Source: Branchiostoma floridae
Lineage: Eukaryota > Chordata > Leptocardii > Amphioxiformes > Branchiostomatidae
NCBI RefSeq assembly: GCF_000003815.2
Contig: NC_049997.1
Coordinates: 1-64,000 of the forward strand
DNA length: 64,000 nt
Direction of reading: 5' to 3'
Positions 25,981-46,004 of the stretch are shown piece by piece; within the stretch, counting starts at the first letter, position 1, and every line of letters starts with the position of its first letter. Position numbers and translations under genes: made by a program. The notes beneath the pieces were generated by a model. It was given only the letters and a program-made list of their open reading frames with translations, did not search any database and was not told where the DNA came from.

Positions 25981-25984
25981 TATT

Positions 25985-27569: not shown

Positions 27570-27655
27570 TATTCTTACGCTCGCGTCAGTTTGGGGTTCC
27601 CAGAGATCGAGGATGTCATCCATACAATCAAATCAACAAGGCATAACGAATGGAT
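27570..27655 (+). repeat. 3' end of a 45301-45690-type MITE
   Basis: TTATTCTTACGCTCGCGTCA, GTTTGGGGTTCCCAGAGA and GATGTCATCCATACAATCAA match the right end of the full element in order. Confidence 0.6.
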
Positions 27656-28156: not shown

Positions 28157-28734
28157 CGAGGGGCGTTCAATTAGTAATAACTCTGACTCATTTCCCATAG
28201 CAGGAGATTAATGAAACTTGGCACAGTTATTAGTCTTTCTCTTCATAGGAACCACCCAGAGTTATGCATTTCTCCCATCGTTTGATGCAGCTCTGGACAC
28301 CGTTTTTGTAGGACACCCCAGGTTGGTCCTCCAACAGATGCCTCATCAATGGCAGAAGAGGAACGACCAGGTCTGGGAGCTGTTTCCACAGACTTCCGGC
28401 CATGTTTGAATTCAGGATGCCAGCGTTTTACAAGGTCATATGATGGGGCATCATCACCATAAGTTTCTTTCATTTCATCAAAAGTCTCCTTTGGTGTGCG
28501 TCCTTTCAAATACAAAAACCGGATCACTGCGCGACACTCAACTGGCTCCATTTCACACCTGGTCCATTTCACACCTAACTCAGTTCAAACACCAGTAAAT
28601 CAGAAACCACAATTAGTTCAGAGCTCTTTTTTGAAACATAAACCATAGAGATATGAATCATTACACATGCAAAATTTTATCCAGATCAGACAACTGGAAG
28701 TTGGTTAGAGTTATTACTTATTGAACGCCCCTCG
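28157..28734 (-). mobile_element. Internally deleted mariner element
   Basis: Flanked by TA dinucleotides (28155-28156 and 28735-28736). Terminal inverted repeats CGAGGGGCGTTCAATTAGTA and the mirrored TACTTATTGAACGCCCCTCG continue into AATAACTCT. The interior encodes on the minus strand only the N-terminal helix-turn-helix part of a mariner transposase. At 578 bp it is about half the usual 1.2-1.3 kb, so it cannot move unaided. Confidence 0.9.
28243..28572 (-). pseudogene. Truncated mariner transposase (N-terminal HTH)
   Basis: 109 codons. Residues about 8-75 match the mariner/SETMAR paired-HTH region: a first helix in VECRAVIRFLYLKGRTPKET, then TYGDDAPSYDLVKRWHPEFK and the linker KSVETAPRPGRSSSA. 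The catalytic DDD domain is absent; the frame passes directly into a short unrelated tail (GGPTWGVLQKRCPEL...). In other systems such truncated proteins can still bind the TIRs; whether this one is expressed is unknown. Confidence 0.85.
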
Positions 28735-28942
28735 TACAACCCAAAAACCCTGGGGCTAACCAGAATAGGGAGGAATAGCTGCAGAAATAACAAGACCAAA
28801 ATTGACAGAAAGGAATTGTGCTGAAAAGGATTTGCAATGGGAAGACGATGAGTTGCACTGATCCGCTGCATAGTTAGAGAAAACAATAAATGAGCAAGGA
28901 GACGTGTCTTCTCTCTCTGTGCACTTCCCCTGGCGTATCATG

Positions 28943-29111
28943 TACACACACACATACACACGCGAGAGCGCGCACACACACACACACACAGACACACACA
29001 CACACAAACGCGCGCGCACACACACACGCACAGACACACACACGCACATACACACACACGCACACAGACACGCGCGCGCGCACACACACACACACACACA
29101 TACACACACAC
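28943..29111. repeat. (CA)n with CG interruptions, running into a gap
   Basis: ACACAC tract with scattered GCGCGC patches up to the N run. The alternating purine-pyrimidine sequence could adopt Z-DNA. Thr-His and Cys-Val frames across it are artefacts. Confidence 0.95.
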
Positions 29112-29558
29112 NNNNNNNNNNNNNNNNNNNNNNNNNNNNNNNNNNNNNNNNNNNNNNNNNNNNNNNNNNNNNNNNNNNNNNNNNNNNNNNNNNNNNNNNN
29201 NNNNNNNNNNNNNNNNNNNNNNNNNNNNNNNNNNNNNNNNNNNNNNNNNNNNNNNNNNNNNNNNNNNNNNNNNNNNNNNNNNNNNNNNNNNNNNNNNNNN
29301 NNNNNNNNNNNNNNNNNNNNNNNNNNNNNNNNNNNNNNNNNNNNNNNNNNNNNNNNNNNNNNNNNNNNNNNNNNNNNNNNNNNNNNNNNNNNNNNNNNNN
29401 NNNNNNNNNNNNNNNNNNNNNNNNNNNNNNNNNNNNNNNNNNNNNNNNNNNNNNNNNNNNNNNNNNNNNNNNNNNNNNNNNNNNNNNNNNNNNNNNNNNN
29501 NNNNNNNNNNNNNNNNNNNNNNNNNNNNNNNNNNNNNNNNNNNNNNNNNNNNNNNNNN
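29112..29558. other. Assembly gap, 447 N
   Basis: Run of N at the end of the CA tract, probably an assembly break in the microsatellite. Confidence 0.99.
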
Positions 29559-29576
29559 TATCACGCCATGCAAAAA

Positions 29577-29830
29577 CGAAACTGTACCATTCCTAAATAA
29601 CCTTTGACAAATATTATGCCGCTAGTAGTATAGAGATACCCGACCTGATATATGTTATAGTTCCCTTTAATACCTACCGTAGATTCCACTAGTATTGTAG
29701 TAACCGAAATTGTTGCAATATAACGTATATGTGTAGTATCAGACCGTACCTTTTGTTGTATATACATTGCCATACATTGTTACTGATGCAATTGTTGCGC
29801 AATAAACCATCTATCTATCTATCTCTCTAT
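29577..29830 (+). mobile_element. LINE/SINE 3' end fragment, plus orientation
   Basis: Inverted relative of 26757-27000. It ends GCGCAATAAACCATCTATCT and a (CTAT)n tail, the form of a non-LTR element 3' terminus. No reading frame belongs to it. Confidence 0.55.
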
Positions 29831-29872
29831 GTTAAAGCCGCCCATAACCAGAATAAAACATAAAGGCTACAC

Positions 29873-29940
29873 TGACTTAATTTTACGGATGACATCCGCG
29901 CGCGCTATTATTTAGTTTTCGCCTGTTTTAAAAAAAATCA
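29873..29940 (+). repeat. Small fragment of the 45301-45690 MITE family
   Basis: Contains ACGGATGACATCCGCGCGCG, followed by the TTTTCGCCTGTTTT block. Confidence 0.4.
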
Positions 29941-30472
29941 CCTCCTCCGAGTCCGAGGCTCCACGCAAGTCCGGAAATTACCGACCCAAAGTGCCAGCAT
30001 ATGTCTGTTTGTTGTAAAACGCCCCAAACGTGCTAAATTTTGTAGTAAATGGTGCTTCTGCACATGCGTTCTGCTTTGCCGCGAATTCGAAATCTGGCAA
30101 TTTGACCATGGTATGACTACTCTCCAAGCAGAGGTAAGGCTCCGGCTGTATTTTTAACGTTTTTTTAGTTGAAAAAACGGACCCTAACTTCTGCTCGACG
30201 GGTAGCAGATGTGTATGGATAAGATCACGTTGTACCCCAAACAAATTCATTTCTTCCAGTTGACCCCAAGTAGTTTAACAACATTCATCTTCTCCTCGTT
30301 GACCCTGACCTTCACACGTGTGTAAAGCTGTAACGCCACCTGGCAACTCTTGTCAATACTGCAGCACTAGACATGGTTTGCCACTCGGGTGTTGCTTGCG
30401 TCAAGGAGGTTATTCAACTGCAGCCGGGAAGATACTCAAACCGGAGTAATTGGGCTGTTTTATGTGCTCCTA

Positions 30473-30592
30473 AAAATACATCGGGGGTCTTCAACCAAGC
30501 AAGGAGGTTAAGGTTTAAACTATAACGTTATAGTTGAAACCTTATCCTCCTTGCTTTCTGGTGAAGACCCCCCCCCCCCAATGTATTTTCTG
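30473..30592. mobile_element. Palindromic fold-back element, about 120 bp
   Basis: The left arm (AATACATCGGGGGTCTTC, AGCAAGGAGG, AAGGTTTAAACTATAACG) is mirrored by TTATAGTTGAAACCTTATCC, CTCCTTGCT and GAAGACCCCC...AATGTATT. There is virtually no loop: the centre is ACTATAACGTTATAGT. It would form a cruciform or long hairpin. Confidence 0.8.
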
Positions 30593-30599
30593 TAGAAAA

Positions 30600-31110
30600 T
30601 ATATAAAAGCATGCATAACGCAGATATTTTACGTATGTTGCCTGACTATATATTGTGTAACGAACACGAAAAATACCAGACGAACAAAAAAAGAATGAAA
30701 ATTGAATCAGGCCCAAGGCCCATAAAAACAAACAAACACAGTACAAAGATTAAAAACTACACAGAAAGAATTTTGTACATAGTGCCGCCAAAACGTGCTA
30801 TGGCGGAAGCCATCTGAGTGGACCAGCAGATAGATTATTGCGCTGTCTGAGGATAACAGCCGGGTAACAAATGAATGACTGAGCTTGCGGAGCTTGGTCT
30901 CAAACGTATCAGTCCGATTCTTTACAAACAAACAGTTGGTGCTTGCATACCTGCCAACAGAAAAGGGCAATTTGAATGCGCTGTGGTATGCTACTCGTAG
31001 TTTGGAAATAGCACCATTGCTGTAGTTACTCTAAATTTGCGCCCCATACATAGGGGAACAATACGCTGAGAACAGCACATTTTGTATACATTTCTCGCAT
31101 ATTATTCCTG
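30600..31110 (-). pseudogene. LINE 3' fragment: end of reverse-transcriptase ORF
   Basis: On the minus strand the frame at 30707-30970, and an upstream stretch with a stop, reads SPMYGAQ...SKLRVAYHSAFKLPFSVGR then NCLFVKNRTDTFETKLRKLS and HSFVTRLLSS. This is the C-terminal region following the RT domain in CR1/jockey-like non-LTR elements (pattern Y-G-x-x, L-x-V-A-Y-N-x-A, F-V-x-x-x-V-x-x-F-x-x-x-L-R-K). Truncated at the 5' side and mutated; the rest is 3' UTR. Confidence 0.7.
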
Positions 31111-31251
31111 CTTCTTTTCATTTTTCAGGACGTCCGGTTCTTTAGGCGACAGGCGGAACTCTCACCACTACTGTACAGCGGCTCTCCCGTCATCCACAGT
31201 AAAACTAACCAGTAAAACGTGAAACATGATTGTTGTATCAATATTCTTTAT

Positions 31252-31430
31252 ACCCCCGTCACATGTAGCAAAAATCGATCGGACGACGAGTCTGCGAGCT
31301 CTAAATTACGAGGAGGCATGACCCTGATGCCGGCGAAGAAATGGTAGAGTTCCACCCCTTCCCATCAGGGTCATGCCTCCTCGTAATTTAGAGCTCGTCG
31401 TCCGATCGATTTTCGCCACATGTGACGGGG
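31252..31430. mobile_element. Fold-back MITE with CCCGTCACATG termini
   Basis: Arms of about 80 bp: CCCCGTCACATGTAGC, AAATCGATCGGACGACGAG, CTCTAAATTACGAGGAGG and CATGACCCTGAT, mirrored with one 7-nt indel, around a loop of about 30 bp. A half copy runs into the gap at 33425-33505 and a diverged copy is at 62422-62616. Confidence 0.85.
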
Positions 31431-32509
31431 ATGTAACACAGAGGACATACTAGTAGCGAATGGGCACCAAAGCAATGAAGCACTAACTGTAGAATGGTAG
31501 TCACGTCTCAGTTTTCATCTTGAGACAATTCACAGATGTTACGTAATAGCGAGGAGTTCTGTCGCTTGAAGAACATTTTGGAAGGCACAGATCATAGTTT
31601 GGCGTTTGATTTTGGGCGTTTCCTAAAAATGCTGAACAGACAGAACCGTGAAACAAAATACAAGCGCTTAAAAATTTAATTCAAAAAGTTACTTAAGACT
31701 TCACTTATAGTTTGACTTCCCTTTATTGTAGTAAATGAAACAAGAAATCTTTTTAAAAAAGCTGTGCCTTGCCGCGTATTTTATGTTATTTTGGTAAGTT
31801 AGACTAGATTCTACGCTTAAAAATCCCGAGTTCCACATGTCGCCCCCCTCCCCCTCATTATCATAATTTATGTCAGATGAATTATTGGCACATTAAACAG
31901 GTTTTGTAAAACTTTTTGACCCACAATGAATATGCATTATTTTTTATTACAAACTAAGTTCCTTCTGATGCAATTTGTGATATATATTTATATGAACATG
32001 GTGAGTTAAAGCGTAGATTTATTACGCTGGACCACATACAGTAACATGCGTCTAGAAGAGCGTTTTAATACTCGTCTGGAATGTACCATTGTCTAACTAA
32101 GCCATGAAACTCGGCAAGGAAAGAAGGGCCTTTGGAAGGGGCTTTGGAAGGGCTGGGTTAAAAGGTCCGTCCATTGATCCATGGAAAAAAGCTGGCGTAA
32201 AGCCTTGCCTGGCGGCAAGGCAAAAACGAAGTGCTTGAAATGGCTGCTTGTATTTATTGGTAAAAGTTCGTTTGTTACAAGCTTTGACCAAGTTATAGCC
32301 GTTCTCTTAAGGTTGTACATATACTGTGTTCATTTGAGACTGGACCACTGTCTCGTTACAATTTAAATAAAGTCAAAGGACCACTGAAGAAGCCACATTG
32401 GCGAAACCGTTCTGTGTGAATAAAAGTTGTAAACGGGAACTATACGGCTCCTGCTGTCTTACTGAGGGGTGACTGTAGTGAGAAAGATATCGGTTAGCGT
32501 GAGGATCAA
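31431..32509. other. Intergenic, no supported feature
   Basis: Short frames at 32093-32366 on both strands overlap one another and show no family motif. A possible 3'-end-like AATTTAAATAAAGTC lies at 32361-32375. Confidence 0.35.
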
Positions 32510-33020
32510 TCCGCTACAACAATCTTTATTGACACGACAAAAGTACAGCGACTTTCGTAAGGTCTACATGTATAACAACTACTTACAGTACAACTAAACA
32601 CATATATATGGATATCTATAGGTGTGGATACATCAACATAAAGGGTCTAGCATGTCATTTACACTATTGGTTCTACGGTATAAACAATCGTGGATATATT
32701 TGCCTACTTGTACACAATGTGGATTATCGCCTCCCAGAATGTACTTGAATTTATCTATCGAACAGAATGTAGCAAAGTCTTTAGAGCAAGTGGAAAGTAA
32801 TGTGAACAGCTCTGTGCGTTTATTATCATATCGAGAACAATCCATAACGAAGTGACATTCGTCTTCGATCTCATTTGGGCAGAATGGACAAAACCTCTGG
32901 TCACGGGGAACTTTAGAATATCATCCGGCTTCTATATTTAGTTTGTGACTACAGATTTTTATCTTTGCTACATACACACCTGTTATCCAACTTATGACAC
33001 TGCCCAATAACACCACACGA
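32510..33020 (-). pseudogene. LINE 3' fragment with Cys/His C-terminal motif
   Basis: Minus strand: KVPRDQRFCPFCPNEIEDEC then HFVMDCSRYD...LFTLLS, ending DMLDPLC and stop near 32633. The Cys-x2-Cys-x7-Cys-His-x4-Cys pattern after an R-V-C-like segment is typical of the C-terminal end of non-LTR retrotransposon ORF2. Upstream (to about 33020) HKLNIEAG is readable but contains a stop. The 3' UTR ends at AATCTTTATTGACAC (plus strand 32520-32534), shared with 36835-36890. Confidence 0.75.
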
Positions 33021-33179
33021 GGCATCAAGCTACGGGGGTTATAAGTGTTTGTGGTTGAGCTGAATGTGAGCTATGGTGGTAGACTTGCAGTACTATATGA
33101 ACGTAAGTTGTGATTAAAGTTTTATATAGGTATGTTATAGTACAGGACGTGTTGTACCCAAAACTATGTTCCCCCCTTT

Positions 33180-33262
33180 GCTGAATTTTTATTTTTTCGC
33201 CCTCTCGCATTAGTTTAGGGGTCTCCAGAGGATGCCATCCATAAAAGCAAGGTGGTGTGGCC
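33180..33262 (+). repeat. 3' end of a 45301-45690-type MITE
   Basis: TTTTTCGCCCTCTCGCATTA, GGGGTCTCCAGAG and GATGCCATCCATAAAAGCAA match its right end with substitutions. Confidence 0.5.
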
Positions 33263-33424
33263 ATAGGTAAAAAAAAAAAGCAAAATGGTCCCACAACCTC
33301 TTTGAAGTGCCGCAGAGACAGTGGGCTGTTATCAGCTGTGTCCGGGGCACAGTATATATTGGAAGGCAGAACCCATCCTTCTCCTTCCACCGCCTTGTAC
33401 CTTCCTACCACTTACATTAGGCGC

Positions 33425-33505
33425 TATTCGATCGGACGACGAGACTGCGAGCTCTAATCTACAGGAAACATGCCCCCGATGCCAAGAAAAAATGGCAAAA
33501 TTCCC
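33425..33505 (+). repeat. Half of a 31252-31430-type fold-back MITE
   Basis: TATTCGATCGGACGACGAGA, CTGCGAGCTCTAATCTACAG and ACATGCCCCCGATGCC match the left arm and loop. The other arm would lie in the adjoining gap. Confidence 0.7.
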
Positions 33506-33605
33506 NNNNNNNNNNNNNNNNNNNNNNNNNNNNNNNNNNNNNNNNNNNNNNNNNNNNNNNNNNNNNNNNNNNNNNNNNNNNNNNNNNNNNNNNNNNNNNN
33601 NNNNN
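33506..33605. other. Assembly gap, 100 N (size unknown)
   Basis: Exactly 100 N, conventionally an unsized gap, between a fold-back arm and a CA microsatellite. Confidence 0.99.
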
Positions 33606-33718
33606 CACACACACAAACACACACATACATACACAAGCACACACACACACACACACACACATACACACACATACACACACACACTCATACACACACACAC
33701 ATACACACACACACACAG
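33606..33718. repeat. (CA)n microsatellite
   Basis: ACACACATAC-type tract ending in a CTCTCTCTCT tail at 33719-33735. Confidence 0.95.
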
Positions 33719-34098
33719 TCTCTTTCTCTCTCTCGCTGTCCCTCTATCAGTCAGTCTCAAAGCAGATACGATACACAAATATTCTAAACTTTTCTCCCTT
33801 TCTATCAGAAATGATAGACTTCCATCAAAGCAGTCGGAAAACATTAGCCTTTTCCCTTTACCTTTGTAGCGTAGTTATGAGAACGAAAATGCTGTTTGTT
33901 TTGGACTGTGTCTGTATTTTCTTTCCATCCGTTATAAATTTCCACAGAAAAGTGGATACAGTCATCTAACCGCTGATCAAGGCAACAAAGAATTTCACTT
34001 GAATGTTTCAACTTTCCGCAACCACATTTGTGAAATAGCACACCGTAGGACCAGGGGAATACGACCTCCTTAGTAGGACTGACGTCTGTAGCGTTGCC

Positions 34099-34250
34099 AT
34101 GGCTACGGACCGTGAGGTTTGGAGTTCTTTATGTTATGAAGAACAGACCTGTAACAAGAAAGTGCAGAGACGACAACTTCCATCTTTACGATCCAAAGAA
34201 CGTAAAGATGCAGTCATGAGAACAAACAGCCGCCGCCGCCTGATCCACCG
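34099..34250 (+). CDS. Exon 1 of the Gly-rich repeat ORF (or receptor 5' leader)
   Basis: ATG at 34099 in GTTGCCATGG; 50 codons plus 2 nt; donor GTAAGTTT at 34251. Upstream, TGACGTC at 34079-34085 resembles a CRE half/core site. No TATA box is evident. Confidence 0.5.
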
Positions 34251-37179
34251 GTAAGTTTCTCTTGTGACACCTCTGGAACTGCTGCCAGTGCTGGGATTTT
34301 CAGCTTGGCTCCGAAAGAACCGACCGCCAACAAGGCTCTACGATTTAACTTTCCCTACGAATAGAAGAATCGTGATTTTGCTCAGGACCCTAGCCTAGTA
34401 GGTCCATGCTGGCTGGACCTGAGTCGCATCTTAATCTCCTTTTTGACATGGATAGATTGAGCTCGGTCCGATGGAGTGAACTAATCTTTGTTCCGACATC
34501 ACTTTCAGCGACTGCCGGTCATTTTCCGGACTGTTCCTGCCGGGCTGCAGCCGCCCTGCCGCACCGGGAAAGGCCGGACGGGACGAGCGGGCCCCTCCGC
34601 CGGTAACTACCTTTCTCACTCCGTACACGTCCTTACTTTCTTACTTTTCGGGTTACTGCCGGGTTACAATCGTCGTGCGGTCGCAATCTGAAGGCATTCT
34701 TGGAATAGTCGTGCTTATGCCTTGCAAAATTTAAATGTCTTAATTGTGCGACTGTCTTAGATTGATATCCTTGTCTCTGTTTTTTTCTGTCACAGCAATT
34801 TTAAAATTCTACGACATCAAAATCGTACCACGGCCGACGACTAATGTGAACGCGTCGTTAGTTGACGTATTACTTGTTGCAGCTCTTTGTGAAATAGAAA
34901 TGTAGTGGCAATTATTGCTGCAGTAGAATTGTTCTTCTTTTCGAAAGTGTTAGATATTAAACAGATAATTGTAACAGTAAGATATCGGGAAACCGTCTAA
35001 TTCTGCGCTAAATGTGCGTTTGAACGATTAGCAGTTGAACAGTCAAGTCTTGTGTGTAGCCTTGTAGCTTTAAAAATTTTACGAAATTTTGTTTTCAAAC
35101 CTTACAAACCGAATAATAATGATCTTTGCCATTTTCGTAATTAAAACAATATGATTTAAATTTTTTTTTTCTATTTTGCTTTTGGACAGACGAGGACAAT
35201 ATTTTGATTAATGTGGCACTGCACTCAAGTTTTTTTTGTAACTTATATTAACAGTGCCACATACACGGTACAGACAGAAGGTACCCATTTTTACACCTGG
35301 GTGAAGTGAGGTAGGTCGTGTAAAGTGCCTTTCCCAAGGGCACAACGTTAGGGCGGGGCATGGTGGGGATCGAACTCAGAACCTCTAGGTTCCGAGCCGA
35401 ACGCTCTACCACTTACGCCGTGCCCGACGCCGATTTAAATTTCTTGCATGACAGATAATTGTAAGAGCTAATTGATATATCATTCGTCTTTCAGCGGGGC
35501 GACGCCCAGCCAGTTGGCCACCCTCAGGTCAAACCTCCCGACGACTGCCAGGGTCGTGGGCGCGGACCGGGGTTCGACGGGCGCGCTGACTACGGTGGGC
35601 GCGGACCGGGGTTCGACGGGCCCGCTGACTACGGTGGGCGCGGACCGGGGTTCGACGGGCCCGCTGACTACGGTGGGTGCGGACCGGGGTTCGACGGGCC
35701 CGCTGACTACGGTGGGCGCGGACCGGGGTTCGCCGGGCCCGCTGACTACGGTAAGACGTACTGCTTGCCCTACGTTCCCAGTCAAGTTGTGCTGCTCTTC
35801 ACACATATAAAAATAACACCCAAACACAGTTAGAGCCCATTCCAAGTCACCATTACGGTTGTGATTGCCACAAATGCTTTGATTTGTTGAAAATATTTGT
35901 CTAAGAGATTTCATATTTTGGGCAATTTTAACGCTATTTTAAGCAAAAAAAACATACTCAAGCAGAAAATAGTGCTGGTTTATCACATACTTTTATGGCA
36001 CAATAAAACCAAATGTACCATTTTGGAAATGTACCAATTATTTTCAGATACTTATTTCTTTTCAGAGAAAGACACACAAAGATATTGAAAATATATCAAA
36101 ATAAAGAGATTTTTTTATACATTCAATTCATAATGAAGTTTCATTTTCATTTTTTTTTACAATCAGAACTATTTTGACTTGATATTCGTTAATTTAAAAT
36201 GATTCAAACTTATTAAACATATTATACAAAAACCATATCGCGATGACTTGGAATGGACTCTACTCCGAACCATTATAGGGTCGGCTCCATAAACGACTAA
36301 CTGAATATCGTACAGAAATTATAACAGCAGCATGGCCAGATAATGATCCATTAATTCCGTTTCTTTTTTCTTTTCAAACGATTAGAATTACCTTCACTTT
36401 TCTGTTTCCTTTGTAATTATGATTTGTCAAACATTCGATGTACATGATTTTTTGTTAAGCTCCCGGAAAACACCTAACGGTATGGTACTATCAAGTAATG
36501 TTTTGTTATCCATAGATGTATTCTGTGATCATAAATCATTTAATAACGAGTATCATTGCATTGACGGTATGTCTGAAAGCTGGGATCTATGATAAGATGT
36601 TACATGACTAGATATAAAGTTACATTTCCGATAGACGATAAGCCGGACTCACAAGCTGGTGTTTGATTGGTTAGTTGCTACTTGGTTGTTTCAATTTGGT
36701 CTCTATCAGACTCTAATGCTCATATAAAAATGAATAGTAGATATTGACCAAATACATTAATATTTGATTGATTGATATCCAGAGGATTTAATCGAATTCA
36801 AGAGTTCCCTTTTGTAACCCACGTTGACTAGCAGATCTTTATTGACACAACCAAAGTTTTCGACTTTTGTAAGGCCTTCTACAACCGCACCTAGCGTACG
36901 TTACGTACAAGCGAAGAAGTGGATAAAAATGGATTAACCCGAGTAACAAGTAATACGAATAGCTGAAGAGTTTTGAGTGTTAATGAACTAGCCAGATAAC
37001 TTCTCTGTTACATTTTTATGCCAATGCGGCCAATTTCTGCTATTTCTCCAGAAACCCTTGGAGTTCGATGTCCACCTGCTCACAGTAATTGATAAAATAG
37101 AAATGTCACAAAGATTTTGCCTCTTTTTTTTTCAGGTGAGACAGCCGGCCGGTTGTTCACCCGTCCCGAAAGCGGATGA
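34099..37179 (+). CDS. Four-exon ORF of 181 codons with Gly-rich repeats
   Basis: Exons 34099-34250, 34509-34602, 35495-35750 and 37136-37179; phases 2, 0 and 1 match at every junction, and all introns are GT-AG with good sites (GTAAGT, GTAACT, GTAAGA donors; TTTCAG acceptors). The start GCCATGG is a good initiation context. Residues 1-51 are basic (MATDREVWSS...RTNSRRRLIHR); about 52-82 Pro/Cys/Arg-rich; about 100-167 five 13-residue repeats GGRGPGFDGPADY; then GETAGRLFTRPESG and stop. I know no family. The stop lies in the same exon as the LRR receptor start 108 nt downstream, so this may instead be the 5' leader of the receptor mRNA containing a long upstream ORF. Confidence 0.45.
34509..34602 (+). 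CDS. Exon 2 of the Gly-rich repeat ORF
   Basis: Acceptor CATCACTTTCAG ends at 34508; donor GTAACT starts at 34603. Phase 2 in, phase 0 out. G+C-rich; reads DCRSFSGLFLPGCSRPAAPG and on to RAPPP. Confidence 0.45.
35253..35427 (-). repeat. tRNA-derived SINE
   Basis: On the minus strand the head starts GGGCACGGCGTAAGTGGTAG (A-box region), then GGTTCTGAGTTCGATCCCC (B box GTTCGATCC) and CATGCCC, forming a tRNA-like block. A tail with GTTGTGCCCTTGGGAAAGGC, shared with 7479-7501, follows. The tRNA part is not a functional tRNA: the arms do not pair properly and the tail continues. It sits in intron 2 of the four-exon ORF. Confidence 0.8.
35495..35750 (+). CDS. Exon 3: five 39-bp coding-length repeats
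   Basis: Acceptor CGTCTTTCAG ends at 35494; donor GTAAGA starts at 35751. Phase 0 in, phase 1 out. Begins RGDAQPVGHPQVKPPDDCQG, then five units of GGRGPGFDGPADY. The repeat leaves three frames open (including ADRGSTGPLTTV on plus and VVSGPVEPRSAPT on minus); splicing phase favours the Gly-rich one. The differences among the units change amino acids in that frame, so there is no sign of purifying selection from them. Confidence 0.5.
36835..36890 (-). mobile_element. LINE 3' terminal fragment
   Basis: CAGATCTTTATTGACACAAC and TTTTGTAAGGCCTTCTACA match the end of the minus-strand LINE at 32510 onward. Only the last tens of bases remain. Confidence 0.55.
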
Positions 37180-37286
37180 AACCTGAACGATCTTCGCAGA
37201 CGCCAGTTAACTTATAACGAGAGAGAAAGGCTTTGTTTTAGGTCATTAGTTGGGTGTTAACGTAGTGATTGTTGACTATATCTGTT
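37136..37286 (+). other. Exon segment linking the upstream ORF and the LRR receptor
   Basis: Acceptor CTTTTTTTTTCAG ends at 37135. The first 44 nt end the upstream 181-codon frame (TGA 37177-37179), and the next 107 nt lead to the receptor ATG at 37287. If used, one mRNA would carry both frames. No promoter signal was recognised in the gap. Confidence 0.5.
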
Positions 37287-39614
37287 ATGTTCAAAGTAGT
37301 ACCGAGGATTGTAACTATTCTCGCTATTGTAGTTGGATGTGTAGGTTTAGACTCGGCATGTTTTCCTGGGTGCAAGTACACAAGTCAGTGGACAGATTGC
37401 GTCCCTTTCCGCAGGTCACACGGTTTGGGTTTGCGTACGCGAGGCACCTGTATGTTATGCACCGCGCAGCTACAGCAACAACCCGCGCGTTTTGTGCAGA
37501 ACTCCTCCCAGCCAACTTCACTGTGCCTTCCCGATGTACAAGATGTGGCGGTTAGGGGGTTCAGATTTGGGGTACTCTTCATTCAGAAACTACGCCCTCC
37601 TCAGAAGTCTTCAGTAAATATCGGTGAGCTTGCTTTGGTGGAATGTGGAATCACAGGTTTAGAGCAGGGCACTTTGGCCGCCTTTCCTTACTTGAGCTCC
37701 TTGCAGCTTGATTCCAACAACTTGACTCACGTCAAGCGAGCCTGGTTCGATGGTTTGAAATATCCAGAGTTGATGCATACCCTGTCATTGTCCCACAATA
37801 ACATAAGCATCATAGATCCAACATGCTTCCAGAACCTTACTGACCTAAATGTATTGCTACTCGACAATAACGCATTACAAAGCATCGACCCATCTTGGTG
37901 TCACAACCTGAAATGGTTAAGCCAACTGTCTTTGAGAGCAAATTCTATCGAAAGCATTCCTCCTCAGGCGTTTAAGTCATTGACAAGGCTCGTCAGGCTA
38001 GATTTGAGCCGAAATGCGTTGACGTGTCTTACATGGGAGACTTTGGACGGGCTACACAAACTAGGAGCGCTAGCACTGAGTGGGAATAGATTGCTTGCTC
38101 TCGATGATTCTGCTCCTTCGGTAATGAACTGGCGTCTTGATTATAATTACTACCGCTTTGCCGGCAAGACCTTTGCAGTTAGGGTTAACCAAGCGCTTTT
38201 CTGCATCACCAAAGGTCCTGGACTACAGCAATATCACGTCCACATACACCACAACAGCACCTCACGCCTAGGTCAGTTGGATCAGGACCATGCCAAGCGA
38301 TGTAGAGCATTGAAATTGAAATCAATGTTGCCCACAACAAACCAGATAAAGTATGACCTTCCATTTGTAGCCATGTCAGTCAACACAGAATCAGACAGAC
38401 ACGTTTCAAACATCAGCCACTCGTGCACACATGCCTGGAAAGCGGTTGCAGGTGTAAAGGTAGTCTTGGGGGGAGACACTACTCTGCAGATTGTTCCCAT
38501 GGGTGTAGACAAGTCCCACCAACCCAAAATCATTGCTGTAGTTGTGTCAGGTATCCTGGCTAATGATGACAGTAAAAACATGTCGTCTGCTGATGGCCAC
38601 AGCAGAAATGTCAGCACCTTTGGTCATGAAGAAATGCTGAATGTGACGTGTCATGTCGACACCGTCCGGGGGGAGACATACCGACATGTCTTCACCACGC
38701 CCGTGTCCAGCACTCCTGATGGAACTGTCTGTGCAGAAGAGATGACCAAGATGGCCACGGAAAAACCCATCACCATGACAACCAAGGTCCCCCTGAATCA
38801 GACGATCCCTACCACAAATGAAACCGTCACTGTGCCGCCGGTAAAGGAGGGGCGCTCGTGCTCTGTATGGACCATCACAGTGATTGCTATAGTAGTTGTA
38901 GTAGGGGTTGAGCATGTAGCAGTGTTAGTGGCATGTATCGTTAGAAAGACGCGTTGTTCCCGGCCGGGCAGCCCACCTGCGCCGGCTGTCGTCTCCCTGA
39001 GTCGCTGGTTGCTAGGCGGGGCAGGCGGCGGTGCCGTCTCGGGCGCTGCGGCGGACTCGGCCTCACAGACCACCGCAGGCCATGAGCATCAGTACAGCGA
39101 AATTCCCGACGACTTCTACAACCCTTGCTACAACTACTGCAACGCAAGGCCGAGGGTACAACCTCCTTACTCGGAGATCCCAGATGAGTACTACAAACAG
39201 TACTACAACACACGGCCTTGGGTAGAACATCCTTTCTGGGAAATTCCCGACGAGTACTACAACAACGAGAACAGACGGCGCCTCTCATACCCCCTGACTC
39301 TCCGGGTGCCCGGTCAAGGCGACGGGGATGACGCTGTGCCTTTCTTCGCCGCTGTAGCTGAGGTGGCCCTTCCTCCCTCCACCCGGCTAGGCGGCAAACA
39401 TCCATCCTACAGCACGGTCCCTCGTACCAGATCAGTCCCACAGATACACGCACGGCAGAGGAAGACAAACATTAGATCGTACGGCGCGCCTGTAGCGGGT
39501 AGGTACAGGGTCAGAGATATGGCCGCCATTGGTAGATATGTCCGAGCACGGGGAGCTCTCATGTCCAGAGCTTGCCAGTATAATAACCCCTCTGCTAACC
39601 GTAACATACATTAG
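37287..39614 (+). CDS. Single-exon LRR transmembrane receptor, 775 aa
   Basis: Start chosen at the first ATG; upstream in-frame TTG codons are not preferred. Residues 1-24 form a hydrophobic signal peptide ending near GLDSA. A Cys cluster (CFPGC...TDC) follows, then about seven leucine-rich repeats at about 113-275 (for example LSSLQLDSNNLTHV, LNVLLLDNNALQSI, LVRLDLSRNAL). No canonical C-terminal LRR cap is evident. Residues about 276-524 are an ectodomain with several N-x-S/T sites and a Thr/Pro-rich stalk; a transmembrane segment lies at about 528-553, stopped by RKTRC. The roughly 220-residue tail has three spaced motifs (YSEIPDDFY 603, YSEIPDEYY 628, FWEIPDEYY 650), which look like phosphotyrosine/SH2-type docking repeats. 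Probably a cell-surface recognition receptor; the ligand is unknown. Intact and intronless in its coding part. Confidence 0.9.
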   Translation: MFKVVPRIVTILAIVVGCVGLDSACFPGCKYTSQWTDCVPFRRSHGLGLRTRGTCMLCTAQLQQQPARFVQNSSQPTSLCLPDVQDVAVRGFRFGVLFIQKLRPPQKSSVNIGELALVECGITGLEQGTLAAFPYLSSLQLDSNNLTHVKRAWFDGLKYPELMHTLSLSHNNISIIDPTCFQNLTDLNVLLLDNNALQSIDPSWCHNLKWLSQLSLRANSIESIPPQAFKSLTRLVRLDLSRNALTCLTWETLDGLHKLGALALSGNRLLALDDSAPSVMNWRLDYNYYRFAGKTFAVRVNQALFCITKGPGLQQYHVHIHHNSTSRLGQLDQDHAKRCRALKLKSMLPTTNQIKYDLPFVAMSVNTESDRHVSNISHSCTHAWKAVAGVKVVLGGDTTLQIVPMGVDKSHQPKIIAVVVSGILANDDSKNMSSADGHSRNVSTFGHEEMLNVTCHVDTVRGETYRHVFTTPVSSTPDGTVCAEEMTKMATEKPITMTTKVPLNQTIPTTNETVTVPPVKEGRSCSVWTITVIAIVVVVGVEHVAVLVACIVRKTRCSRPGSPPAPAVVSLSRWLLGGAGGGAVSGAAADSASQTTAGHEHQYSEIPDDFYNPCYNYCNARPRVQPPYSEIPDEYYKQYYNTRPWVEHPFWEIPDEYYNNENRRRLSYPLTLRVPGQGDGDDAVPFFAAVAEVALPPSTRLGGKHPSYSTVPRTRSVPQIHARQRKTNIRSYGAPVAGRYRVRDMAAIGRYVRARGALMSRACQYNNPSANRNIH

Positions 39615-40110
39615 CAAACAGGCAGCAGACAAAAGTACCAGGCTGCACACTAGCGCAAACCCTCAAGGACACGCCCAAACACGGCATATCCACAGGTCAC
39701 AAGTCCCTGCAATCCCAGATCTGAAGGCGACGTCTTGGTAGAGTATGATGAGGACAACACAGACCACATTCACATGTCACAAACCTGTAGCTTGTGGGCT
39801 ATCAAAGCCGGTAAAAAATCTACAATGGGGGCAAATCATAGCCGACAGAGGTTCTAGGGAATGTATGATATTGAGCAAGCGAGCAATCTATTCCAGAGAA
39901 AGTAACATTCAATGTTTTCAACCCACAAAAATGCATGTTGAGACGACTTTAAGCACTCACATGCAGTTTGTTACATCTTTGAACTCCCAGATTTAATTTT
40001 CCCAGCACTTGAATCAGAACAGGTCCGAAATGTGCCCCTGTATCAAATCATATTAAAGTTACTAGGGATGTCCCTAAAATTCTGAGGCCCCATGTCTTTC
40101 TAAATCCTCG
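39615..40110 (+). other. Probable 3' UTR of the LRR receptor
   Basis: Follows the TAG at 39612-39614. An ATTAAA poly(A)-signal variant is at 40052-40057. The in-frame-looking ORFs here lack support. Confidence 0.35.
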
Positions 40111-40253
40111 CATCTCTTGTGTCACAACGTTAATGTACCTCCACCTGGACTAAGGGAAGGTATCAGTGCGCACACTTTTAGCTGACAAAACGCTGCGCAA
40201 TACATGCAAAAAATTACACACAAAAACATATACAGTCTCTCTCTCTATATATA

Positions 40254-40255
<2 letters not shown>

Positions 40256-40301
<46 letters not shown>
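40256..40301. repeat. (CA)n microsatellite
   Basis: Uninterrupted ACAC tract of about 44 bp preceded by CTCTCTCTCTATATATAA. Confidence 0.95.
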
Positions 40302-40878
40302 CCATGCTCACAAACAGACGAGCATCTTCCTGCCTTTCCTACAAGACTCACCTGGCATAGAGCTTAAACTACAAGTTTTTTTCAAATCAATACTGGCTTG
40401 TGGCTTAGTGGCAAGCTGTACTGCACATTTTGCATGGTGGCTGTGATAAAAGTTTAGAAATCCAATGCTTCTTAATCCTGCGCCCAGGAAAATTGCCGAG
40501 ATTAGTAGTTGTTTTTTTGACGAAGAAAGTGTCATCTTGTGACTGTAAGTCTAAACAATGTTTAATTAGAGAATAGCTTCAGTCAGCAGTTTAAACGTAA
40601 GGTTAAGTTTGTGATGTTTAACACATTAGAATTGTGAGTTGCGCATCTGGAAAAAACGTCAAGATGAACAATGTAACACATCATCCACTCAGATCTGTCT
40701 TTTAAAAATGTGTGAAAATGAATAATGAAAAAAAATGAATATGGAAAAAATCTTTTAAAAAGTATATTTACTTGCTTAAATTGTAACAAATAATCTCACG
40801 CAATATGTCTACCAAAATTCACTTTTCAAAAGCAGCGCTGCGTGGTAAAAGGTAAACTGGTACCCAGTCTACCGTGGC

Positions 40879-41066
40879 TTGGGCGGGATCTCTTCGGGGC
40901 TGTACCGTGGGGCTCTCCGCCGCCCGAATCAACTGTCTCGCTTGGTAGTAGTTTTATGTACACGTTCGGTGTTCATTAGTGCACCAAACAGCTTGAAACT
41001 GCACCGAGCGCAATCGTTGACTCGGGCGGCGGAGAGCCCACACAGCCCCGAAGAGATCCCGCCCAA
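40879..41066. mobile_element. Fold-back MITE with TTGGGCGGGATC arms
   Basis: TTGGGCGGGATCTCTTCGGG, GCTGT, GGGCTCTCCGCCGCCCGA and a short TCAAC are mirrored at 41012-41066. The arms are about 50 bp and nearly perfect apart from a small indel; the loop is about 80 bp. No ORF. Confidence 0.8.
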
Positions 41067-41515
41067 TTCACGATACTAATTAGATACCTGGTTAGGTAAA
41101 AGGGACTTTCCAGAAACAGCCTTGAGAGGGGCGCTAGCAACATCATCGTTGTTATGCATTGATCATAACCAACAATGGATCATCCCTGCATCCCAGCAAT
41201 GGATTATCCCTGGCTACCAGTGAAAAATACACCATAACGTTTCTCATTTAGTGTTTCACCAATGTTTTACAAATATTGACAACATTACCAATCAGGCGGT
41301 TTTGAGCCAGAAATGCCCAGCCGTTTACTTTACTACCTGAAATGAAATGAAGCAAACGCATTTATGAAACTCAGAGGTTTAGTACAAAACATTACACAGT
41401 GTGTGTTCATCAAACAGAGAGTTTATTTACTGGTCCCTCCCCATTGAAGCATCTCCACGGCTGGCCGCCAGGGTAGCACACCTGTCTTGTATGACGCGTT
41501 TTGTGTCCCTGTCAG

Positions 41516-41532
41516 CCGCGCCCCCTAGCGGC
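41516..41532 (-). promoter_or_regulatory. CTCF-like site
   Basis: On the minus strand GCCGCTAGGGGGCGCGG fits the vertebrate/insect CTCF core CCRSYAGRKGGCRC closely. A weaker CCGCCAGGGTAGC lies at 41466-41478. It sits between the LRR receptor and the convergent dioxygenase gene, where a domain boundary would be plausible. Motif match only. Confidence 0.35.
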
Positions 41533-42204
41533 GACAGTGCAGGACAGATGACGTGAAAAATGAAAACAACTGAAATCTTTGTGAAACCAGTTCACAGACT
41601 GACTGGAGACGACTTGCTTGTAGCTGGACTACTGAGCATGGGAGATGTAAACCGATGGTAGGAAATCAATAAACATTGAACCGTCTGGCCACGTGTTTTT
41701 AATTATGTATATATGTGTATGATGGTCATGAATGATATCGAATGTTACCATGTATATTATAATCATGGGTGGTGACATGGCACACTTTTACAGGAAACGC
41801 CGCAATTCGTGAAGTTGAAAAAACATAGAAGGAAATGGCGATACCTGGAAGGATGATTCTTAAGGCCTTGTTGTTCGCTGGCATAATGACCTTATTGAAA
41901 AGCGGCCATGATTAAAATATATAATAAACGAACAGCCATAGGGAATTAATAAAGGCATTGACTTCACTATAATCTCCAATTAGGTTATCTATCCATATAT
42001 AAATGTAGGTAAAAAAGAGAAATTGAATGAAACTATATAGCTAGTAAATACAATGATGTTTATATGTCATAGCTTCATATGTCATAAAAAGGAGGTGGTA
42101 ATAACCATAAACTTCTATTCGATGAAACTAAAAAATGTCACGCAACTGATCTCAACTGTCCAAGGTGTCCCTGTACTAAGTTTAAGATTAGCTGGTTTGA
42201 AGTC

Positions 42205-43085
42205 TAGGGCACAGGAACATATTTATTACTTTCGCCAGAAACTTCGCCAGAATGTGTGAGTCTGTCTGTCTGTCTGTCTGTGTGTTTACAGCATAACTCG
42301 AGAAGCCTTGGTTGGATCTTAATGATATTTGGTAGGTGGGTAGGGTTCAGGAAAACGAAGGTCAAGTTCGATAATGGACCCCTAGCGGCTTCCTAAGATG
42401 CTGCAGCAGAATCTCAATTTTTGATATCTCGTGTTCTGGACATGCTGTGGTCATGATTTTTATGTGGTAGATAGTCCCTTGGGTCAGAGAGTAAGTGCTG
42501 TGAGTTTGGACCCCCTAGCGTTTTTTTGGAACTGCAGGCGCCGGTTTCCTGTCAAACTTTGGTCGAGGACAACTCGAGAACGCGTTGACAGATCGTTATG
42601 ATTTTTGGTGTGTAGATAGAAGTAATGTATTACATAATGGTATACTAATTATGCAAATCAATAGCTATTTTGCATAATTAATGAGGAAAGTTTATAAATC
42701 CACTGCATTCTACGATAGAACTTTCAAACTTGTCACATATGTAGCTGGGAAAGAGGGAAATGTCGATAGATGGCAATTATGCAAATGAGGACCTGATTTG
42801 CACAATTTATGAGGAAATATGAACGTGTTGACGGATCGTCATCATTTTTGGTATGCAGATAGCTTAAGGGAAGGCTTACACAATGAGACACTAATTATGC
42901 AACTTAACAGCTAATTGGCATAATTAATGAGGAAAGTTCATAAATCCACTGCATTCATGATATGACTTTCAAAGTTCACATATATAACAGAGTTTGTGTG
43001 ACTTTATCAAATAACACATAGACATCATTCTACATAACAAACCTGATTTATTTGGCGAAGGTATGTGTTCGTGGAACTCTAGTTC
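42205..43085 (+). repeat. Dispersed repeat (TTCGCC ... GTGGAACTCTAGTTC), nearly full
   Basis: Starts near CAGGAACATATTTATTACTT and TTCGCCAGAA, with (TGTC)n at 42262-42281, ATAACTCGAGAAGCCTTGG, TGGACCCCTAGCGG, repeated ATTATGCAAAT/TTTGCATAATTAAT blocks, and ends TTGGCGAAGGTATGTGTTCG then TGGAACTCTAGTTC. Relatives at 20335 and 26222. The short inverted TTCGCC/GGCGAA ends suggest a non-autonomous DNA element. Confidence 0.55.
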
Positions 43086-43285
43086 ACATATGATGCAGCT
43101 ACTAATAGATATATTATAGAAAAGATGAGTGCGTCTGGTAATTCTAGTTCAGAAATTATACCACGTGAAAATCGGCACAAGGCTTACTGGGCAACACTTG
43201 AGGTTAGATCTCTATGTACATGAGATACATAAAATGGCCTGCATGCAAACCCGTTATATAGTGAGTGCAATACAAGTTAAACTTC

Positions 43286-43502
43286 TCAGTTCAGAACGAT
43301 GTCCCACTCCGCCACCTCACTGATGGTGTATGACGTCCCTCCCACGGTGTAACTCCCTTCGTCACCGCTAGGGGCGCGAGGCTCCGCCACCTGGCTGGGA
43401 TTCTCCGACCCACAGAACCCACATGGGTCGTGGACACCCAGACTGCTGTCCCCGGAGAAATACATCTGAGTGACCAGGGTCCGCCGACCTGGGGCGGTCA
43501 CC
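43286..43502 (-). CDS. Dioxygenase-like, last coding exon
   Basis: Minus-strand acceptor TTTGTTCCAG precedes 43502. Reads VTAPGRRTLVTQMYFSGDSS, then a Cys/Pro-rich DPCGFCGSENP and a hydrophilic tail to TGA at 43288-43286. The LVTQMYFxGD block is a conserved core strand of the family. The Cys-containing tail appears to be an addition. Confidence 0.85.
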
Positions 43503-45227
43503 CTGGAACAAAGACAGACAAGAGTTCGGAGACCTTGTATCTCCATTAAAACAGCCTGATTATGCAAATGACTTCCACATCTAAATAAACTATGCCTGGT
43601 TATACACACCTTTAACTAACTTACACAGGTCACAATGCCAACAGTCCAATCTTTTACTAGTTAGTTAAGAATTATAGCACTATTGCAATAATCTAAGACC
43701 CTATTTACATAATTGGCACCTGGCCAGCGGCCATAAACTACACATGTAGCATGTATTTGAGTCCTGTAATGGATTTTCCTCATTAATCATGCAAATTAAG
43801 TTCTAATTTACATAAGTTGCAATTCTTTATGTTATTTCTATCAAAGCTAAATACATACGAAATATCATGGAAATCCGTTGTTCCTTTCTTCAGTTATTCT
43901 CCTCGGAAAATTCTGACAAAAGAGCAGCTACTGTTCCGGAGCAAGCTACTCGGGGCCCAAACCTACACATGTACAGTTTCTTTACCACATCACAACCTAC
44001 CCACCACCAAAATACCAAGATGATAGCACGTCCATGTCGAAAGATACAGAAATCGGACGTTTTGCTGCAGTACCGAGGTCAAATACCAGGAGGCTAAAAT
44101 TGACAATATTGACTTTCGTATTCCCAACCTCTATCAACTTACTAAATACATTACAATCCATCCAGCGGTTGTATCCGGAAACACAATCAGTGGTAAGACA
44201 TGATGATTGGATTGTGACCTGTGTATTATCTAAGCAAGTTAAAGGTGTATGTAACCAAGTATAGATTATGCAGATGTGAAAGTCATTTGCAAGATCAGAA
44301 TATTTCATGGAGTTTCATGGAGTTCGAAATTCTAAACGATTTGTTTTGATTGGATGGGAGCTACAATGTGGTAAAATCAATATAAGTTAGATTAAGTTTC
44401 CAACCTGAAGTGCACATGCGCAGGACGGGTGTACCAGCCCCAGCCGTACTTTCCCGGCATGATGGTGATGAAGCTGTACCTCCCCTGGGGGTCCGTGATG
44501 ACCTTACCACGGCAGAAGTTCAGCCTCCGGGTGTCCATGAAGTAACTGGGAGGGGTACGGTTGGGGGTGGGGGTGGGGTGGTGTCGATTTCAACAGAAGT
44601 TAATCCTGTTCATGTAGTACGTACTAGTAATTGAAACGGGGAGGCGGAAAACAAAAGTTCCCAGAGTGTTCATGTAGTAATTATAACGGGGAGGAGAGGG
44701 GAACAGAAGTTGAAAGAGTGTTCATGAAGTAACTGAGTTTCAAGAAGTTCAACCTCTGAGGGTTCATGTAGTGTAAGTAAGATTTGACGCAAGTTTTAAC
44801 TTGTAACAAATTCAAACGTCTGCAGTCAGTCACACACTTCCAGCCAGCACAACAAAGTCAGTCGTAATTACGTATAGAATGTACTTTTGCGTCTTTCCCT
44901 CTTATCAATTTTATTGACAGTCGCGGTTACATGGCAGACAATGAGCACGGGTTTGTATTGAAAACTTTGTATTGAAAGTTCAATTTTACATTCAGCTTAC
45001 TTTCAGTTCTTCTCATGTTATACTTGAAAATTTATGTTTTGACTCATGTTATTTCATTGTTTTGGAATCTCAAATGGACTCCAGGAAGACTAGATTTTAC
45101 GTAACGTCTAACGGAGATCGAAACAAACAAACAAACAAACAAACAAACAAACTCACTGTCCACTCGAGTCGGCCTGCCAAACCTCCAGGGTTGCCCCGGT
45201 AATCACGGAACACGTGGTGTCCCTCAC
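43286..45227 (-). CDS. Intradiol ring-cleavage dioxygenase-like gene, 5' incomplete
   Basis: Three minus-strand exons: 45227-45157, 44545-44405 and 43502-43286, with phase-matched GT-AG introns (phase 2 at both internal junctions). The joined product reads VRDTTCSVITGATLEVWQAD, then SSGHYF, ITDPQGRYSFITIMPGKY, RPAHVHF and APGRRTLVTQMYFSGD, ending AEWDIVLN and stop. This order is diagnostic of the intradiol (catechol/protocatechuate) dioxygenase fold. The four Fe(III) ligands expected for the family can be placed: Tyr in GHY, Tyr in PGKY (or the nearby WYTRP) and both His of AHVH. Such enzymes open catechol rings between the hydroxyls. The N-terminal third is not found; it may lie beyond the MITE at 45301-45690 or in the 46005 gap. 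Substrate and localisation unknown. Confidence 0.85.
44405..44545 (-). CDS. Dioxygenase-like, central exon with His ligands
   Basis: Acceptor CGTACCCCTCCCAG and donor GTTGGA on the minus strand; 141 nt. Reads YFMDTRRLNFCRGKVITDPQ, GRYSFITIMPGKYGWGWYTR and PAHVHF. Contains the second Tyr ligand and both His ligands. Confidence 0.88.
45121..45153. repeat. (CAAA)n microsatellite
   Basis: About eight CAAA units starting a few bases past the dioxygenase exon's donor. Confidence 0.95.
45157..45227 (-). CDS. Dioxygenase-like, upstream exon
   Basis: The minus-strand acceptor is a poly-C tract ending CTCAG; donor GTGAGT after ...AGTGGACA. 71 nt, phase 0 in, phase 2 out. Reads VRDTTCSVITGATLEVWQAD then SSG; LEVWQAD is the family signature preceding the first Tyr ligand. 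Confidence 0.85.
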
Positions 45228-45300
45228 CTGAGGGGGGGGGGGGGGTAGTGTCTGGGTTTGAATCTGAGTGGATTATCTGGATGTAATCCAGCAGCTTTTA

Positions 45301-45690
45301 GGCCATGTTGATTTGATTAAATGGATGACATCCACGAGCGCATCATTTTTCGTCCCTTTCGGAACACGATAAAAAGGGTTTCACCATGCTTTGAATCATA
45401 TAAAGCATCTGCGAAAGGAGCAAATACATGCCGTAGATTATAAAAAATATAGATCAGAAAACATAACTTACATTAATGTCAACGTCAATTCCAAGGTCAA
45501 AGAAGAAGAAAACAAAAATGAAGAATCTATTATTAGGTATTCAATACTTTGTGTCATTTGTTCAATCTTTTAGCCCAGTTAGAATTCATAATGAAGCCAC
45601 CTTTTTGGGGCCAAACATTTTTATTCGCACGCTCGCATCAGTTTTGAGATTCCGAGAGAATGTCATCCATATAATCAAATAAACATGGCC
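45301..45690. mobile_element. 390-bp MITE, TA target duplication
   Basis: GGCCATGTTGATTTGATTAA and ATGGATGACATCC at the left are mirrored by GGATGACAT-like TGTCATCCATATAATCAAAT and AAACATGGCC at the right. Flanked by TA at 45299-45300 and 45691-45692. This is the only complete copy; fragments are at 25985, 27570, 29873 and 33180. Inserted in the dioxygenase gene just upstream of its first recognised exon. Confidence 0.85.
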
Positions 45691-45849
45691 TACTGTCTGT
45701 AGCTAGAGTTTAGGTGACAATAGAGACAGTTTTACCCTCAAGTATCAATATAACTTGGAGCGAGGCAACACGGTTAACGCACTGTCCTTGTTACTGTACT
45801 TGCTCAACTTTACACGTAGGCACTGAAACGACTAGAGGGGCGAGTAGAA

Positions 45850-45965
45850 CAGAAATAAACACTAATACATATATAATATATATTCTCCCGAGAATCGAAC
45901 CCGGGCCGTCAGATCACAAACCTAGCAGCACAACCAATTTGACCAAAAGCCTAACAGGCATTTGG
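45850..45965 (-). repeat. Possible tRNA-derived SINE head
   Basis: The minus strand has CCCGGGTTCGATTCTCGGGA, a strong B box in a T-arm-like hairpin, preceded by TTGGTTGTGCTGCTAGG, which is A-box-like. The acceptor stem does not close, so it is not called as a tRNA. Confidence 0.4.
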
Positions 45966-46004
45966 CATAGTCGGCTGGCGCTACTTGAACCCCCACTGTT
46001 ACAC

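What the first reader, a model, noticed from the sequence alone, without database searches (positions are those of the whole stretch)
43286..45227. Intradiol dioxygenase-like gene with all metal ligands in an animal genome
Three spliced minus-strand exons give the order LEVWQAD, GHY, ITDPQGRYSFITIMPGKY, RPAHVHF, LVTQMYFSGD, as in protocatechuate/catechol 1,2-type dioxygenases, with both Tyr and both His ligands placeable. The family is mainly bacterial and fungal, and in animals is known from few lineages, where transfer has been proposed (for example spider mites). Here it has animal-type introns and a transposon in its upstream intron, so it is resident rather than contamination. A chordate-grade member with a Cys-rich C-terminal extension (DPCGFCGSENP) would be worth describing.
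Basis: partly seen in the sequence, partly recalled or inferred. Interest (0 to 1): 0.8.

Follow-up and report, generated by a model that had tools for sequence, protein, structure and literature searches.

The report
Amphioxus-type secreted catechol-ring-cleaving enzyme gene
This stretch holds the last three exons of a gene for a secreted-looking, iron-dependent enzyme of a family best known from bacteria and fungi, and the same animal genome carries related copies with the same intron layout, so it is a long-resident animal gene, although its activity is untested.

Summary
Confirmed and extended. The three minus-strand exons (45227-45157, 44545-44405, 43502-43286) join to 142 residues matching PF00775 at E=2.8e-22. 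The four presumed iron ligands align with Tyr134, Tyr169, His194, His196 of chlorocatechol dioxygenase 1s9a. The window lacks the first two exons. A near-identical inverted copy about 1.18 Mb away has a signal-peptide-like exon and a GPYY exon, but a gap lies where its exon 3 should be. Diverged paralogues on C18 (69% identity) and C4 (47%) share the intron positions; the C4 gene is complete, 199 aa. Bacterial relatives found are 29-39% identical. Best reading: an old, resident, secreted intradiol dioxygenase family of this animal (probably Branchiostoma floridae; inferred), cleaving dietary or endogenous catechols. HGT is possible but untested; no fungal or other animal genome was searchable. 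No held paper pairs intradiol with amphioxus, Branchiostoma or deuterostom-. Activity, expression and fold were not tested.

The parts
45157..45227 (-). Exon 3 (71 nt, phase 0 in, phase 2 out): VRDTTCSVITGATLEVWQADSSG(H); Tyr ligand 1 (GHY) begins exon 4 just across the junction
   Evidence: same length (71 nt) in the C18 and C4 paralogues
44405..44545 (-). Exon 4 (141 nt): Tyr ligand 1, Tyr ligand 2 (PGKY), Arg and both His ligands (RPAHVHF)
   Evidence: also found by the PF00775 search of the genome
43286..43502 (-). Exon 5 (217 nt incl. stop): VTAPGRRTLVTQMYF... Cys-containing C-terminus ending EWDIVLN
   Evidence: 72% identical exon on C18 and 42% on C4
46005..46104 (.). Run of N (assembly gap) upstream of exon 3; exon 2 is expected within or beyond it
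   Evidence: window 46004 corresponds to L003 8312, about 180 bp downstream of the end of exon 2 in the second copy (L003 8027-8133, read by hand)
12439..46004 (.). Stretch with an inverted counterpart at C19 about 1.219-1.251 Mb, in pieces: the main ones 95-99% identical, others 85-94%, with unmatched intervals (uncollapsed allele or duplication)

Best explanation
The exons are the last three of five of a resident animal gene for a secreted, single-domain intradiol ring-cleavage dioxygenase. Shown: exon layout (signal-peptide-like exon; GPYY exon; VWQAD exon; ligand exon; Cys-containing end), with exons 1-2 read only in the second copy. Inferred from established family chemistry (recalled): Tyr, Tyr, His, His hold a non-haem Fe(III); a catechol chelates the iron, displacing the second Tyr; the activated substrate reacts with O2; the ring opens between the two hydroxyls to a cis,cis-muconate-type acid. 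Six cysteines probably form disulfides suited to an extracellular enzyme (inference). The most likely role is extracellular removal of catechols and polyphenols from the diet, as proposed for gut enzymes of spider mites. The confidence below is for a resident, secreted, working intradiol dioxygenase; the dietary role alone I put near 0.5.
For: PF00775 E=2.8e-22, 5.5e-25 with exon 2 added, 3 of 3 paralogues matching. Y25, Y57, H67, H69 align with Y134, Y169, H194, H196 of 1s9a, and R64/Q83 with R191/Q210 (that these are the 1s9a ligands is recalled). Ligand columns are kept in 24, 24, 24 and 23 of 24 non-amphioxus rows (3 duplicate and 3 further bacterial hits were dropped beforehand). Paralogues on C18 and C4 with the same exon boundaries. 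Exons 4-5 differ from the near-identical copy at 3 of 358 bases, while the aligned pieces holding them are 89.8% and 95.5% identical overall. dN/dS against C18 0.37 over 140 codons, one pair. Signal-peptide-like first exons in copy 2 and C4 (by eye). Mite enzymes are secreted, found mainly in the gut and cleave catechols and polyphenols (PMC9167512, abstract and passages).
Against: No expression, fold or activity data. The window copy alone lacks exons 1-2; the full C19 protein is a composite of two near-identical copies. Two of the three differences between the copies change an amino acid. The nearest solved relative by profile, 9yh9, is a distant match. No member passes a catechol or protocatechuate dioxygenase equivalog cut-off.
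Confidence: 0.72

Rival explanations
1. Active intradiol dioxygenase, but acting on endogenous catechols (DOPA, dopamine, tanning or defence catechols) or microbial catechols rather than on diet. (A rival only to the dietary role.)
For: Same sequence evidence; the mite paper reports activity on dopamine too (PMC9167512 passage).
Against: No expression site known; the mite precedent favours gut and diet.
Confidence: 0.2
2. A catalytically silent secreted protein that keeps the fold and perhaps the iron site but has another use (binding, matrix).
For: Bacterial relatives found are only 29-39% identical; the C18 paralogue has Val for Ala in RPAHVH; no activity data.
Against: All four ligands plus the Arg and Gln are kept in 3 of 3 paralogues.
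Confidence: 0.12
3. The window copy (not the family) is dead or truncated: exons 1-2 really missing and replaced by Helitron-bearing sequence.
For: No exon 1-2 match in the window; sequence beyond the gap gave no match to the upstream part of copy 2 (hits over 150 bases shown).
Against: An assembly gap lies exactly there; an orphan exon 2 (1 of 107 bases different) sits between gaps at C19:13549781-13549887, as expected of a misplaced piece of a second allele; no stop or frameshift in exons 3-5.
Confidence: 0.2
4. Bacterial or fungal contamination of the assembly.
For: The family is mainly bacterial and fungal.
Against: Spliceosomal-type introns at shared positions in family members on three large contigs; no close bacterial sequence found (fungi not searched).
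Confidence: 0.01

Closest known systems
Spider-mite intradiol ring-cleavage dioxygenases (DOGs; Tetur07g02040, PDB 6bdj/5vg2)
   Same: Animal, secreted, same PF00775-type domain; one mite enzyme shown active as a monomer (PMC9167512 abstract and passages)
   Different: Profile match weaker than to bacterial-type chains (6bdj 46.5 and 5vg2 46.8 bits against 77.8 for 9yh9); mite genes are reported as a single transfer from fungi; no sign here of a shared transfer, but no tree with mites could be made
Catechol / chlorocatechol 1,2-dioxygenases (1s9a, 2xsu, 3hgi)
   Same: Tyr, Tyr, His, His plus Arg and Gln align with 1s9a
   Different: The match to 2xsu starts only at its residue 102 of 312, so the N-terminal part is missing here; Tyr 2 to His 1 spacing is 10-11 residues here against 24 in 2xsu, though 11 of the 22 bacterial rows also have spacings of 14 or less; signal-peptide-like start and six shared Cys
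Short intradiol dioxygenases (L021/L032 of a Verrucomicrobia MAG; PDB 9yh9, 182 aa; 4ilt/4ilv)
   Same: Short catalytic domain; short Tyr 2-His 1 spacing in L032 (7); TAT-like start in L021 by eye; L032 is the nearest row in the tree (81/76)
   Different: 39% identity at best segment for L021; long branches; amphioxus cysteines not seen; organisms of 9yh9 and 4ilt/4ilv were not shown by any search
Tardigrade intradiol dioxygenases
   Same: Named among tandem clusters of HGT candidates in tardigrade genomes (PMC5531438 passage)
   Different: Sequences not available here; relation untested

Membership tests
Intradiol ring-cleavage dioxygenase (PF00775) | Match to the Dioxygenase_C profile above its gathering score | tested here: met
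   79.5 bits against 27.3; 3 of 3 paralogues matched
Intradiol ring-cleavage dioxygenase (PF00775) | Two Tyr and two His iron ligands in order Y-Y-H-x-H | tested here: met
   Alignment to 1s9a Y134, Y169, H194, H196; invariant in A1
Intradiol ring-cleavage dioxygenase (PF00775) | Active-site Arg and Gln after Tyr 2 | tested here: met
   R64/Q83 align with R191/Q210; kept in 3 of 3 paralogues
Intradiol ring-cleavage dioxygenase (PF00775) | Beta-sandwich fold with convergent ligands | not tested
Intradiol ring-cleavage dioxygenase (PF00775) | Bound Fe(III) and ortho cleavage of catechols | not testable with these tools
   Needs protein
Catechol 1,2-dioxygenase equivalogs (TIGR02439, TIGR02438, TIGR02465) | Score above the curated equivalog cut-off | tested here: not met
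   C19 composite: 72.2, 59.8 and 81.8 bits against 392, 404.4 and 359.25; for the other two members only best E-values are shown, which imply the same
Protocatechuate 3,4-dioxygenase subunits (TIGR02422, TIGR02423) | Score above the curated equivalog cut-off | tested here: not met
   C19 composite: 74.5 and 43.1 bits against 296.4 and 126.25
Spider-mite DOG clade | Shared origin with mite/fungal sequences | tested here: inconclusive
   Weaker match to mite chains than to bacterial-type ones; no tree with mites or fungi possible

The most novel reading that the evidence does not exclude
A chordate has kept, for long enough to duplicate and diverge to 47% identity with intron positions intact, a family of secreted Cys-stabilised enzymes that open catechol rings between the hydroxyls, a chemistry described in a 2022 mite paper as unique in animals, and acquired it independently of the mites.
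Probability: 0.45. Interest if true: 0.68.

Novelty: new member of a known kind. Interest (0 to 1): 0.52.

Why it matters
A 2022 paper on mite enzymes says intradiol dioxygenases were formerly considered restricted to bacteria and fungi and calls the activity unique in animals (PMC9167512 passages); tardigrade genes of this name were already reported as HGT candidates (PMC5531438 passage). A resident multi-copy family in an amphioxus-type genome would extend the animal range to deuterostomes, give a further lineage in which to study catechol detoxification, and offer a test case for ancient transfer against ancient inheritance with loss.

Tried and rejected
Upstream exons inside the window: a motif scan of both strands and blastn against the second copy found none. 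The Helitron as proof of residence was rejected because of the gap at 46005-46104. Contamination was rejected (introns, family members on three contigs). A close bacterial donor was sought and not found: 12 loci at 29-39% identity from genome contigs (two short patterns only, so not exhaustive), and 11 of 194 genomes of one phylum with a match, the starting genome G001 included. Tree (27 rows): the three amphioxus proteins form one group (93/94); the Verrucomicrobia row beside them has a very long branch and weak support (81/76), so no donor is named. Six of the 28 bacterial hits were left out before the tree and the ligand counts: three duplicates (L021, L033, L034) and three second or weaker genes (L036-2, L038+1, L044); by eye L036-2 lacks the usual ligand pattern, so the near-complete ligand conservation is for the rows kept. 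Rfam scan of the window: 0 matches. Species identification by a GFP-family search did not complete.

Cysteines: in A1 all six are invariant; in the 27-row alignment two of the six are out of register in the C4 row, so their equivalence in C4 depends on the alignment. Also, at C1 23 of 24 and at C136 12 of 24 other rows have a gap, so absence there says little.

Weak side matches: PF13620 (CarboxypepD_reg) matches 3 of 3 paralogues below its cut-off (23.5 against 32.3 bits for the first) and was set aside as overlapping the stronger PF00775 match. Stops reported inside some exon matches lie where the match runs past an exon end, in the two that I checked by eye (45153 on C19 and 9853088 on C4).

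Full report
Observation. On the minus strand at 45227-45157, 44545-44405 and 43502-43286 lie three open exons with canonical donors and acceptors. Joined they give 142 residues: VRDTTCSVITGATLEVWQADSSGHY...RPAHVHF...LVTQMYFSGD...DPCGFCG...EWDIVLN. The Pfam match is PF00775 (Dioxygenase_C), E=2.8e-22. Solved relatives by sequence include chlorocatechol, catechol and hydroxyquinol 1,2-dioxygenases, protocatechuate 3,4-dioxygenase and the spider-mite enzyme (38 distinct sequences at E up to 1).

Active site. In the alignment with 1s9a the query's Y25, Y57, H67 and H69 fall on Y134, Y169, H194 and H196, and R64 and Q83 on R191 and Q210. That these are the iron ligands of 1s9a is recalled, not taken from a call. 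Among 24 non-amphioxus rows (22 bacterial, 2 PDB fragments) the four ligand columns are kept in 24, 24, 24 and 23 rows, the Arg in 23 and the Gln in 14; three duplicate and three further bacterial hits had been left out.

Whole gene. The window sits at the start of contig C19 (17.1 Mb) of a 513,431,437-base, 431-contig genome. A PF00775 search found two places: the window's exon 4 and C19:1220723-1220857. At the second, exon 1 (L003 6562-6628, MFPFVSILLVGLIVLPEVFAQS) and exon 2 (L003 8027-8133, CGATHRDVLGPYYLHGVPYQRLVCSGGPYLLVTGT) are present, a gap (L003 8458-9622) lies where exon 3 should be, and exons 4 and 5 follow (exact ends of exons 1-2 read by hand). In the window the reverse holds: exons 3-5 are present, and a run of N at 46005-46104 begins about 180 bases short of where exon 2 would end. 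The two places match inverted, in pieces, from window 12439 to 46004: the main pieces at 95-99%, others at 85-94%, one of 146 bases at 100%, with unmatched intervals. An orphan exon 2 with one difference in 107 bases lies between gaps at C19:13549781-13549887. The simplest reading is two alleles of one locus, each incompletely assembled and partly misplaced; a true inverted duplication is not excluded.

Paralogues. A protein search of the genome gave 10 matches: both C19 places, C18:16404535-16406276 and C4:9852969-9853825. A search with the C4 protein gave 14 matches and no further place except the orphan exon 2. The C4 gene is complete: five exons, 199 aa, signal-peptide-like start. On C18, exons 2-5 are read (exon 2 by hand) and an 8.2 kb gap lies upstream. 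Exon 3 is 71 nt in all three; the exon 2/3, 3/4 and 4/5 boundaries agree in phase in all three, and the exon 1/2 boundary in the two where exon 1 is known. Mature proteins are 69% and 47% identical to the C19 composite. Six cysteines are invariant in that three-sequence alignment; in a wider alignment two of them are out of register in C4, and of 24 other rows only one (L023, at C1, where the other 23 have a gap) has a Cys in these columns.

Selection. Window against second copy, exons 4-5: 3 differences in 358 bases, two of them amino-acid changes, while the aligned pieces that hold these exons are 89.8% and 95.5% identical overall. Window exons 3-5 against C18: dN/dS 0.37 with dS 0.65 over 140 codons, one pair, simple counting method: moderate purifying selection.

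Relatives. In the genome collection 12 bacterial loci encode relatives, 29-39% identical (found by two short patterns, so closer ones could be missed). In 194 genomes of the phylum of the Verrucomicrobia hit, 11, that genome included, had a match. In a tree of 27 rows the three amphioxus proteins form one group (93/94); their neighbour is a long-branched Verrucomicrobia row with weak support (81/76). By profile the nearest solved chain is 9yh9 (77.8 bits), with the mite chains at 46.5 and 46.8 bits. This does not suggest a shared origin with the mite genes, but no tree with mite or fungal sequences could be made. The C19 composite is far below all five NCBIfam equivalog cut-offs it touches, and the best E-values of the other two members imply the same, so they should not be named catechol 1,2- or protocatechuate 3,4-dioxygenase.

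Literature. PMC9167512 (abstract and passages seen) says the enzymes were considered restricted to bacteria and fungi before mites, that mite genes came from fungi, and calls the activity unique in animals; it reports iron content, catechol and polyphenol cleavage, and expression mainly in the gut. PMC5531438 (one passage) mentions tandem intradiol dioxygenase clusters among tardigrade HGT candidates. PMC12105342 holds the word only in its reference list. Searches pairing intradiol with amphioxus, Branchiostoma and deuterostom- found 0 papers each; with metazoan and mollus- 1, the tardigrade paper; with horizontal gene transfer and invertebrate 6 (listing, two of them looked into). A broad six-term search was uninformative. 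Branchiostoma + horizontal gene transfer + dioxygenase gave 11 and dioxygenase + amphioxus + catechol 2 (listings only), none with a title on this subject. Only open-licence papers are held, and database annotations of amphioxus were not searchable, so the gene may well carry an automatic family label already.

Species. Amphioxus is an inference: contigs C4, C18 and C19 of 34.2, 18.6 and 17.1 Mb fit the 19 chromosomes of B. floridae (PMC12373286 passage), though I did not see the size of the next contig, and the assembly size fits what I recall. A confirming GFP-family search did not complete.

Verdict. A real, resident, multi-copy animal intradiol dioxygenase family with all presumed metal ligands, secreted by its look. 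Function by family mechanism is likely but untested; origin by transfer is plausible but untested.

Noticed in passing
37269-39614 (+): Long ORF (781 aa, stop to stop) with leucine-rich repeats and, by eye, a transmembrane-like stretch; its inverted counterpart near C19 1.23 Mb is about 97% identical.
   Followed up: partly
49028-56368 (+): Large Helitron with OTU, DUF6570, Helitron_like_N, PIF1 helicase and endonuclease-type domains in long open frames.
   Followed up: partly
C19:13549781-13549887 (L049): Orphan exon 2 of the dioxygenase gene between assembly gaps, 1 of 107 bases different from the second copy: probably a misplaced contig of the other allele.
   Followed up: partly
C18 about 16406481 (L015): Partial repeat of exon 2 (CVVCRGGPYLLVKGA) just downstream of the real exon 2 of the C18 paralogue.
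   Followed up: no
about 12762-14799: Apparent tandem array with a period of about 59 bases inside the inverted duplicate, seen as many shifted matches; no tandem-repeat tool was run.
   Followed up: no
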